NCBI GenBank assembly: GCA_016290295.1
Contig: JAEETJ010000005.1
Coordinates: 62,001 to 126,000, forward strand
Length of the DNA stretch: 64,000 nt
Direction: 5' to 3'
Source: Bacteroidales bacterium
GTDB lineage: Bacteria > Bacteroidota > Bacteroidia > Bacteroidales > WCHB1-69
The notes below the pieces were generated by a model. It made no database searches, was not told where the DNA came from, and was given only the letters and a program-made list of their open reading frames with translations. This document shows positions 35,371-37,770 of the stretch, in pieces. Position 1 is the first letter of the stretch. Every line of letters begins with the position of its first letter. The translations under genes and the position numbers were made by a program.

Positions 35371-37770
35371 ATGCCAAAGCTTGTAGTCACCGGTCTCGGC
35401 ATTATCACAGCCATGGGTGCTGGCAAGGAAGCCACCGTTCAGCAATTGTTGAGCGGCAAAAGTGCTATTGGCGATCTGCAGATATTACAGACCAAGCATC
35501 ATGAATTGCCTGCCGGTGAAGTGAAATATACCGACGAAGAACTGAAGCAGCTCATCGGGATGCCTCTTGAGCAGCTATGCAACCGCACCACCCTGCTGGC
35601 TCGTGTAGCCTTGAAGGAGGCCCTGACGGAAGCCCAGCTGAATGAGGATTTTCCCGACAAGGTGGCCTTTATTTCCGGCAACACCGTAGGAGGCATGGAG
35701 AAAAGTGAGCTTTATTACCATGACTTCAAAGAGAATAACAGCCGGAATGAGTATATCGGCATGCACGATTGCGGAGCCTGCACGGAAATGATTACCGAAG
35801 AGTACAAAGGGAAATTCATGCTGACCAGCACCATTTCCACTGCCTGCTCTTCAGCAGCCAATGCCGTCATTTTGGGGGCTAACCTCATCAAAGACGGCAG
35901 TGCTGACATCGCAGTGGTTGGCGGCACGGAATGTCTGTCGAAATTCCACCTCAACGGCTTCAACACGCTGATGATTTTGGATCAGGATATATGCAAACCA
36001 TTTGATGCCCAGCGTAATGGCTTGAATTTAGGAGAAGGCGCCGCCTACCTTGTCATTGAGACAGAAGAGTCTGCCATTCGCCGTAATGTTCCCATACTGT
36101 GCGAACTGAGCGGCTACGGCAACAGTTGCGATGCCTTCCACCAGACAGCCACTTCACCACAAGGGGACGGTCCCTTCTTCGCCATGCAAAAAGCACTGAA
36201 AAGCAGTGGTCTGGATATCAAAGATATTGACTACATCAATGCTCACGGCACAGGTACTCCCAACAACGATGAATGTGAAGGGAATGCCATGATGCGTATT
36301 TTCGGAGACAAGATGCCGCCAATATCTTCCACCAAATCCTATACCGGTCATACGACCAGTGCTGCAGGAAGTGTGGAAAGCGTCATCAGCATTCTGTCTA
36401 TCCTGCATCATTTCATCCCCGCCAACCTGAATTACCAACAGGCCATTGAGGGACATAACTTCAAGCCTGTTGCCGAGGTCATCAACAACGTGACCTTACA
36501 CCATGTACTTACCAATTCCTTTGGTTTCGGAGGAAATGACTCGTCGTGTATTTTTTCCGCATATCAGAATACAGGGCACAGGAATCAGGGGTCAGTGGTC
36601 AGTGAGCAGATATCAGAAAATAGAATTCAAAATTCAGAATTCAAAATTCAAGAAGCAGAGGAGACTAATGCGTCTTCACGCATCAACGTCTCAACGTCTC
36701 AACGTCCGATATATATCCTGGCGGCTTCGCAGATTTCGAACCAAATGCCGCTGAGTGAGCAATGGTTTGAGCAGCCGTTATTTCCTACTGTTGCTAACAG
36801 TGATTCGCAAGAGGCGGATTACAGCAAATATATCAGTCCCATGGTTGCCCGCCGTATGGGCAAGCTCTTCAAGCGCGCCATCGCCACTGCAGTAGATGTG
36901 ATGGATAAAGGAAAAATGGAGCAGGTGGATGCCATCATCACAGGCACTGGATTGGGATGCATTGAGCATACGGAGAAATTCCTGAATGCCATGCTCGACA
37001 ACGACGAGGAATGTCTGCCTCCCACCCATTTCATGCAGTCCACCCACAACACCATCAGCTCGCAGATAGCCCTGCACCTGAAATGTCATGGTTACAACTG
37101 CACATATTCTCACCGAGGCACCTCTTTTGACAATAGCCTCCTCGACGCCCTTACCCAAATGCACCTTGGAGATATCCACAGTGCCATGGTATGCGGCCAT
37201 GAGGAAATGACACCGGCCTACTTCGAAATGTTAGGCAAGATTGGCTACTGGAAAGAAGGCCAGTTCGATGAAAAAACATTGCGCCGGCACGACAGTATTG
37301 GTTCTTTTTCCGGCAGCTGCTCGGTCAACCTGCTGCTCAGCGATACCGCCAACGACGAAACAATGTGTGCAATTCAATCCATTGACTTGCTGTTCAAGCC
37401 CAGCCAACAACAGTTACAAGAGGCCTTACAACAGCGTTTAGCCCAGCTGAATATCAGCATTGAGGATATTTCAGCTGTGGTGATGGGCTTGAGTGGTGAC
37501 CAGGCAAACGACGAAGTGTATTTGAACTTTGCCAGACAGAATTGTCCCGACACCCCTGTGGTTTGGTACAAGCACATCTTTGGCGAATCGTACTGTGCCT
37601 CCGCTTTTGGTGTCTATACCGCCGCTGTCATGCTGCAACGCCAGAATATCCCTGCCCATTTGATGTATTCCACTCCTCAGACTGCCATCAAGCCCAAGTA
37701 TATTCTAGTTTACAATCATTTTCAGAATAAAGACCATTCACTTATACTTTTGTCATCATGTTCGTGTTAA
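35371..37770 (+). CDS. KS - chain-length-factor-like fusion protein
   Basis: N-terminal KS with TACSSAANA, INAHGTGTPNND, TKSYTGHTTSAAGS; C-terminal KS-like domain (THFMQSTHNTISSQIALHLKCHGYNCTYSHRGTSFDN) lacking the catalytic Cys. Confidence 0.83.
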   Translation: MPKLVVTGLGIITAMGAGKEATVQQLLSGKSAIGDLQILQTKHHELPAGEVKYTDEELKQLIGMPLEQLCNRTTLLARVALKEALTEAQLNEDFPDKVAFISGNTVGGMEKSELYYHDFKENNSRNEYIGMHDCGACTEMITEEYKGKFMLTSTISTACSSAANAVILGANLIKDGSADIAVVGGTECLSKFHLNGFNTLMILDQDICKPFDAQRNGLNLGEGAAYLVIETEESAIRRNVPILCELSGYGNSCDAFHQTATSPQGDGPFFAMQKALKSSGLDIKDIDYINAHGTGTPNNDECEGNAMMRIFGDKMPPISSTKSYTGHTTSAAGSVESVISILSILHHFIPANLNYQQAIEGHNFKPVAEVINNVTLHHVLTNSFGFGGNDSSCIFSAYQNTGHRNQGSVVSEQISENRIQNSEFKIQEAEETNASSRINVSTSQRPIYILAASQISNQMPLSEQWFEQPLFPTVANSDSQEADYSKYISPMVARRMGKLFKRAIATAVDVMDKGKMEQVDAIITGTGLGCIEHTEKFLNAMLDNDEECLPPTHFMQSTHNTISSQIALHLKCHGYNCTYSHRGTSFDNSLLDALTQMHLGDIHSAMVCGHEEMTPAYFEMLGKIGYWKEGQFDEKTLRRHDSIGSFSGSCSVNLLLSDTANDETMCAIQSIDLLFKPSQQQLQEALQQRLAQLNISIEDISAVVMGLSGDQANDEVYLNFARQNCPDTPVVWYKHIFGESYCASAFGVYTAAVMLQRQNIPAHLMYSTPQTAIKPKYILVYNHFQNKDHSLILLSSCSC

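What the first reader, a model, noticed from the sequence alone, without database searches (positions are those of the whole stretch)
36571..36707. KS and chain-length-factor-like domain joined into one protein by a repeat-derived linker
ORF 35371-37770 has an N-terminal KS with Cys-His-His and a C-terminal KS-like domain in which the Cys region is YSHRGTSFDN. The junction DNA is repeat material: CAGGGCACAGGAATCAGGGGTCAGTGGTCAGTGAGCAG, then AATTCAAAATTCAGAATTCAAAATTCA, an ATGCGTcttcACGCAT hairpin, then (TCAACGTC)x3. In characterised APE and type II PKS systems the KS and CLF are normally separate heterodimer partners. A covalent KS-CLF produced by repeat invasion would be a natural gene-fusion experiment, and it sits in the same operon as the 34.5-kb case.
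Basis: partly seen in the sequence, partly recalled or inferred. Interest (0 to 1): 0.8.

Follow-up and report, generated by a model that had tools for sequence, protein, structure and literature searches.

The report
Single-chain ketosynthase–chain-length-factor with repeat tether
In a rumen Bacteroidales pigment-type gene cluster, two enzyme halves that usually come from separate genes are made as one protein joined by a floppy tether of repeat DNA; the joining is real, conserved and recurrent in this bacterial order, but at this junction it happened before the repeats arrived.

Summary
In detail: 35371-37770 is one 799-aa ORF, an active-site-bearing KS (aa 1-397), a stop-free tether of tandem repeats (aa 398-445) and a catalytically dead KS-like CLF (aa 446-799). 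AlphaFold gives pTM 0.91, with only the tether disordered; the best solved match spans both halves: PfaC KS-CLF (6RIW, TM 0.79). It lies in a flexirubin/aryl-polyene-type operon, is under strong purifying selection, and occurs in independent genomes, so it is no artefact. KS-CLF fusion is recurrent in Bacteroidales (about 8 fused/split changes for this pair, 15 for the neighbouring pair). Here the fusion predates the repeats: sister lineages are fused through 15-19-aa non-repeat linkers. Repeats later colonised the tether, and alleles swap: 99%-identical proteins carry unrelated tethers, and G000-G003 tether DNA has 0/48 third-position changes against 34% in the domains. The neighbouring pair (33313-35091) does fit 'fusion by repeat invasion': nearest relatives are split without repeats, and fused ones carry three unrelated repeat types. 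Closest precedent: the PfaC KS-CLF didomain. A new variant of a known kind, moderately interesting.

The parts
35371..37770 (+). Fused KS1-CLF1 ORF, 799 aa
35371..36561 (+). KS domain; C159-H292-H327 (and K322) invariant in homologues
   Evidence: PF00109/PF02801; alignment of 76
36562..36705 (+). Repeat-derived tether (48 codons): TCAGGGG-type heptamers, AATTCAA heptamers, small hairpin, TCAACGTC octamers; aa 403-442 predicted disordered
36706..37767 (+). CLF domain; positions of the KS catalytic Cys/His/His are Gly/Gly/Glu
   Evidence: PF13723, hhalign KS vs CLF, 6qsp_B, fold
33313..35091 (+). Second fused pair KS2-CLF2 (592 aa) with truncated, about 180-aa CLF
34484..34557 (+). Repeat-derived linker of KS2-CLF2 (TCAGGGG and TCACAAT heptamers)
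35110..35367 (+). Acyl carrier protein between the two fused KS-CLF genes
   Evidence: PF00550
26869..28380 (+). FlxA tyrosine ammonia-lyase of flexirubin-type clusters
   Evidence: NF053541 832 bits, cut-off 700
28224..29108 (+). FlxB SDR ketoreductase (ORF as listed; true start is probably further in)
   Evidence: NF053542 408 bits, cut-off 340
29159..30379 (+). Third, FabB-like stand-alone KS (compare FlxC/ApeR)

Best explanation
The ORF encodes a single-chain KS:CLF heterodimer of a flexirubin/aryl-polyene-type polyketide synthase. The N-terminal KS does the condensations. The C-terminal CLF has lost the catalytic residues and serves as its dimer partner and pocket wall. The 40-48-residue tether is a disordered rope that keeps the two at 1:1 (shown: sequence, predicted structure, selection; inferred: enzymatic role and benefit). 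The fusion arose in the common ancestor of this genus and its sister lineages by loss of the tight stop/start boundary, with a short non-repeat linker. Genome-wide 7/8-bp tandem arrays, tolerated in this former gene boundary, then enlarged the linker, and linker alleles are now exchanged by short recombination tracts while the reading frame is kept. The adjacent KS2-CLF2 gene is a second fused pair, and there repeats probably did create the fusion.
For: Domain and fold: pLDDT 89.5, pTM 0.91, only 403-442 below 50; 6RIW, TMq 0.79 over 927 columns, against about 0.47 for single KS chains. Purifying selection on both halves, dN/dS 0.04-0.12. Fused in all 7 genomes of the genus in which the gene was found, plus G021, G041 and G055 with non-repeat linkers. 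No full-length stand-alone CLF1 among close relatives. Tether exchange: 0/48 third positions differ in the linker against 258/751 in the domains (G000-G003, p 7e-9); low-divergence tract 36544-36734; linker types scattered on the protein tree. KS2-CLF2: split in G001, G021 and G055, fused with three unrelated repeat types in their sisters.
Against: No biochemistry. The CLF's control of chain length is inferred from family resemblance. Direction (fusion versus fission) is parsimony, not proof. DNA-level constraint could mimic recombination in the linker. G021 nests inside the genus, so repeats were either lost there or gained twice. The AlphaFold alignment was built from fused homologues only. 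P0122 and P0124 (75-76% identity) are gene calls that begin inside the CLF and could be off-frame alleles; their DNA was not seen.
Confidence: 0.82

Rival explanations
1. One reading: repeat invasion of the KS1/CLF1 intergenic junction itself destroyed the stop/start and created this fusion.
For: The linker is repeat DNA; the arrays sit exactly at the former gene boundary and otherwise lie between genes or at gene ends; the same process is credible for KS2-CLF2 and for the KS2-CLF2-ACP triple fusion P0266.
Against: Sister lineages G021, G041 and G055 are fused without repeats, and the fused clade of 11 is supported at 99%. Most of the distant fused homologues listed have short non-repeat junctions.
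Confidence: 0.12
2. The arrays make a frame switch: because units are 7 or 8 bp, copy-number slippage toggles between a fused KS-CLF and a truncated KS (phase variation).
For: Units are not multiples of three; linker length varies greatly between near-identical proteins; one other forward frame of the linker contains stops; P0122 and P0124 start inside the CLF and might be off-frame alleles.
Against: All 32 genus-level fused alleles examined are in frame, with many different linker lengths; KS2 linkers differ by 42 nt, six heptamers, between G000 and G006. The search that gave these alleles only admitted fused-length candidates, so off-frame alleles were looked for only through.
Confidence: 0.07
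3. Assembly artefact or decaying pseudogene.
For: The window's genome is a MAG-type draft; a one-base frameshift exists in Prevotella histicola JCM 15637.
Against: Independent genomes and many metagenome contigs carry the same ORF; dN/dS 0.04-0.12.
Confidence: 0.02

Closest known systems
PfaC KS-CLF didomain of PUFA synthases (PDB 6RIW; domain order KS-CLF-DH2 in PMC3098273)
   Same: KS then CLF in one chain; best whole-length structural match, with both halves placed alike (TMq 0.79).
   Different: 15% identity; PfaC is part of a megasynthase with DH domains, while this is a free-standing two-domain protein of a type II-like cluster with separate ACP, KR and DH.
ApeO:ApeC KS:CLF heterodimer of aryl polyene synthesis (6QSP; PMC8358021)
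   Same: Same class of gene cluster; the CLF half matches ApeC (6qsp_B, E 3.9e-6); catalytically dead partner.
   Different: ApeO and ApeC are separate chains; ApeC keeps one thiolase fold only, whereas CLF1 here is full size (CLF2 next door is the truncated type).
Flexirubin cluster ketosynthases FlxC/I/L/N/O of Chitinophaga pinensis (PMC3992019)
   Same: Same operon type (FlxA, FlxB equivalogs met); a locus titled Chitinophaga pinensis carries the homologous pair (L145).
   Different: There the KS and CLF genes are separate.
Intergenic heptamer repeats (TAACTGA arrays in Beggiatoaceae, Cyanobacteria and some Bacteroidetes; PMC4679880)
   Same: Short 7-bp direct tandem arrays, mostly intergenic.
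   Different: Different units; here arrays also lie in frame inside two fused genes.

Membership tests
KS-CLF pair (type II PKS / aryl polyene type) | Catalytic Cys-His-His in KS | tested here: met
   C159, H292, H327 invariant in 76 fused homologues
KS-CLF pair (type II PKS / aryl polyene type) | CLF has the KS fold but lacks the active-site Cys | tested here: met
   PF13723 42 bits; hhalign puts Gly at Cys, Gly and Glu at the two His
KS-CLF pair (type II PKS / aryl polyene type) | KS and CLF form a 1:1 dimer | tested here: inconclusive
   Predicted intramolecular, pTM 0.91, matches 6RIW; not measured
KS-CLF pair (type II PKS / aryl polyene type) | CLF sets or shapes product length | not testable with these tools
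   Needs in vitro reconstitution
Flexirubin / aryl polyene gene cluster | FlxA tyrosine ammonia-lyase and FlxB reductase in the operon | tested here: met
   NF053541 and NF053542 above cut-off
Flexirubin / aryl polyene gene cluster | ApeI-like dehydratase, ACP, FabB-like third KS | tested here: met
   PF22818, PF00550; FabB-like KS, below the equivalog cut-off
Flexirubin / aryl polyene gene cluster | Makes an aryl polyene pigment | not testable with these tools
   Organism known only from a draft genome here
PfaC-type KS-CLF didomain | KS-CLF followed by DH domains in a PUFA synthase | tested here: not met
   Protein ends after CLF; stand-alone ACP and DH
Repeat-created gene fusion (KS1-CLF1) | Nearest repeat-free relatives are split | tested here: not met
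   G021, G041, G055 fused without repeats
Repeat-created gene fusion (KS2-CLF2) | Nearest repeat-free relatives are split | tested here: met
   G001, G021, G055 split without repeats; sisters fused with repeats

The most novel reading that the evidence does not exclude
Stop-free tandem arrays act as gene welders and as exchangeable linker cassettes: they repeatedly fuse operon neighbours (KS2-CLF2 three times in one small clade, KS2-CLF2-ACP in P0266), and once a fusion exists the tether becomes a recombination hotspot whose in-frame alleles move between species independently of the enzyme domains.
Probability: 0.35. Interest if true: 0.7.

Novelty: new variant of a known kind. Interest (0 to 1): 0.5.

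Why it matters
KS-CLF heterodimers set chain length in type II polyketide and aryl polyene synthesis and are normally handled as two subunits. A large natural series of fused and split pairs, with tethers from about 15 to about 50 residues and near-identical domains joined by unrelated tethers, is a ready-made test of whether covalent linkage changes activity, stoichiometry or product length. The neighbouring gene offers a case in which short tandem repeats appear to have created gene fusions.

Tried and rejected
Assembly artefact: rejected by independent genomes and contigs. Linker as a dispersed mobile cassette: the full 144-nt unit is found only at this gene in G000, G003 and G006; elsewhere only its heptamer blocks match. 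Functional hairpin ATGCGT/ACGCAT: stem broken in G003. Separate start for CLF1: the AGGAG-ATG at 36659-36670 is out of frame with the CLF; other in-frame starts cannot be excluded. P. histicola as a split allele: it is a one-base frameshift of a fused ORF, so the KS1 change count is about 8 rather than the 9 given by the tree. Sequence searches for CLF2 gave no credible family; its identity rests on the fold and gene order. Paper searches for naturally fused aryl polyene KS-CLF found none, but subscription journals are not held.

Full report
Observation. The ORF 35371-37770 is open for 799 codons and contains, in order, a KS (PF00109 + PF02801), a repeat-rich linker and a PF13723 domain. The window carries 41 merged 7/8-mer tandem arrays against 0-1 in dinucleotide shuffles. 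These lie between genes or overlap gene ends; the only ones lying wholly inside a gene are the four in the linkers of this ORF and of its neighbour 33313-35091. Those four arrays have no stop codon in any forward frame, while arrays between other genes of the operon that were checked (26193, 26291, 29101, 45504, 46887) have stops in all three. One unit pair, AATTCAAAATTCA, occurs 100 times in the genome and 35-163 times in six of the eight other genus members and in G021, with 0-1 for the reversed control; it is nearly absent from G005, G008 and G041.

Setting. The operon holds FlxA tyrosine ammonia-lyase and FlxB reductase above their curated cut-offs, a FabB-like KS, an ACP and an ApeI-like dehydratase, so it is a flexirubin/aryl-polyene-type cluster. 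The window's genome is an unnamed draft; the closest named records with this gene are uncultured rumen and other ruminant Bacteroidetes.

What the protein is. In an alignment of 76 fused homologues the KS residues C159, H292, K322 and H327 are invariant. A profile alignment of KS against CLF puts Gly, Gly and Glu at the catalytic Cys, His and His, so the CLF should be inactive as a synthase. Its best solved relative by sequence is 6qsp_B, E 3.9e-6, the ApeC chain of the ApeO-ApeC crystal structure (PMC8358021). AlphaFold2 gives pLDDT 89.5 and pTM 0.91 for all 799 residues, with only 403-442 below 50. Foldseek's top PDB match is the KS-CLF didomain of PfaC (6RIW), TMq 0.79 across both halves, while single KS chains reach about 0.47. 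KS2-CLF2 gives pTM 0.87 and the same top hit (TMq 0.71); its CLF is truncated, as described for ApeC (PMC8358021).

Age of the fusion. In a survey of 101 genomes the pair is fused in every genus member in which it was found and in G021, G041 and G055. The linkers of these three are 19, 16 and 15 residues long without repeats; other relatives mostly have two genes that abut or overlap within a few bases. On a KS tree of 112 loci the clade of 11 holding the window is entirely fused (99), and fused/split needs 9 changes in all (4 forced by well supported branches; one of the 9 is a P. histicola frameshift). So fusion is recurrent, and at this junction it is older than the repeats. The counts are not a census: the named loci were found with an alignment of fused proteins.

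The neighbouring pair. KS2-CLF2 shows 15 changes on 88 loci (8 forced). In the small clade around the window, G001, G021 and G055 are split with tight or overlapping stop/start and no repeats. Their sisters are fused: G000/G003/G006 by TCAGGGG and AATTCAC heptamers, G002/G007 by CAGGTTA/CAGGTGA heptamers, and G041 by a GTAGAGACGGTGCATGCACCGTCTCTAC palindrome. Three unrelated repeat types at three fusions fit 'fusion by repeat invasion'. P0266 goes further and welds KS2-CLF2 to the ACP through a peptide that reads like translated AATTCAA heptamers. Other fused KS2-CLF2 lineages (G058, G033, G051, G052, G011) show no obvious repeats in the linker, so repeats are not the only route.

Selection and exchange. 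Both halves are under purifying selection (dN/dS 0.04-0.12 for KS1 and CLF1). Linker alleles change abruptly: P0002 is 99% identical to the window outside the linker yet has MHNAQCTMHNA in place of the window's tether, and each repeat type needs several changes on the protein tree. Between G000 and G003 the linker has 0 of 48 third-position differences, against 258 of 751 in the domains (p 7e-9); the low-divergence tract is about 36544-36734 and none of 2000 permutations reproduced it. Short-tract recombination between species is the simplest reading. DNA-level constraint is not excluded, but alleles with other linkers argue against it. In 32 genus-level alleles the frame is kept. The CLF-only search found no full-length close stand-alone CLF1; of the partial ones, P0121 contains the KS end and linker and so is a truncated fusion, P0123 comes from a 1.1-kb contig, and P0122 and P0124 start inside the CLF and remain unexplained.

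Verdict. A real, functional-looking single-chain KS:CLF of the aryl polyene kind, with PfaC as structural precedent. The repeat tether is a later, fast-evolving insert here and a likely cause of fusion next door. Enzymatic behaviour and any benefit of the tether are inferred.

Noticed in passing
35064-35091 (end of KS2-CLF2) and protein P0266: The CLF2 C-terminus runs into an AATTCAA array before its stop; in P0266 a longer array appears to read through into the ACP, giving a KS2-CLF2-ACP triple fusion (745 aa).
   Followed up: partly
window-wide, e.g. 45504-45565, 58215-58294: About 40 arrays of many different 7- and 8-bp units between genes or at gene ends; origin and role unknown.
   Followed up: partly
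L039 (G041) KS2-CLF2 linker; P0254-P0347: A palindromic interspersed repeat is translated in KS2-CLF2 linkers as ETxxxASLQQ-type peptides.
   Followed up: partly
33000-39400: The operon is a mosaic: nearest relative switches between G006 and G003 along it (e.g. 33700-35100 and 38800-39400 against the rest).
   Followed up: partly
L130 (Prevotella histicola JCM 15637): A one-base deletion breaks the fused KS1-CLF1 ORF relative to P. jejuni: sequencing error or pseudogene.
   Followed up: yes
36659-36670: AGGAG followed by an ATG inside the linker, out of frame with the CLF.
   Followed up: yes
P0122, P0124: CLF1 gene calls at 75-76% identity that begin inside the CLF domain; possible off-frame or broken alleles.
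   Followed up: no
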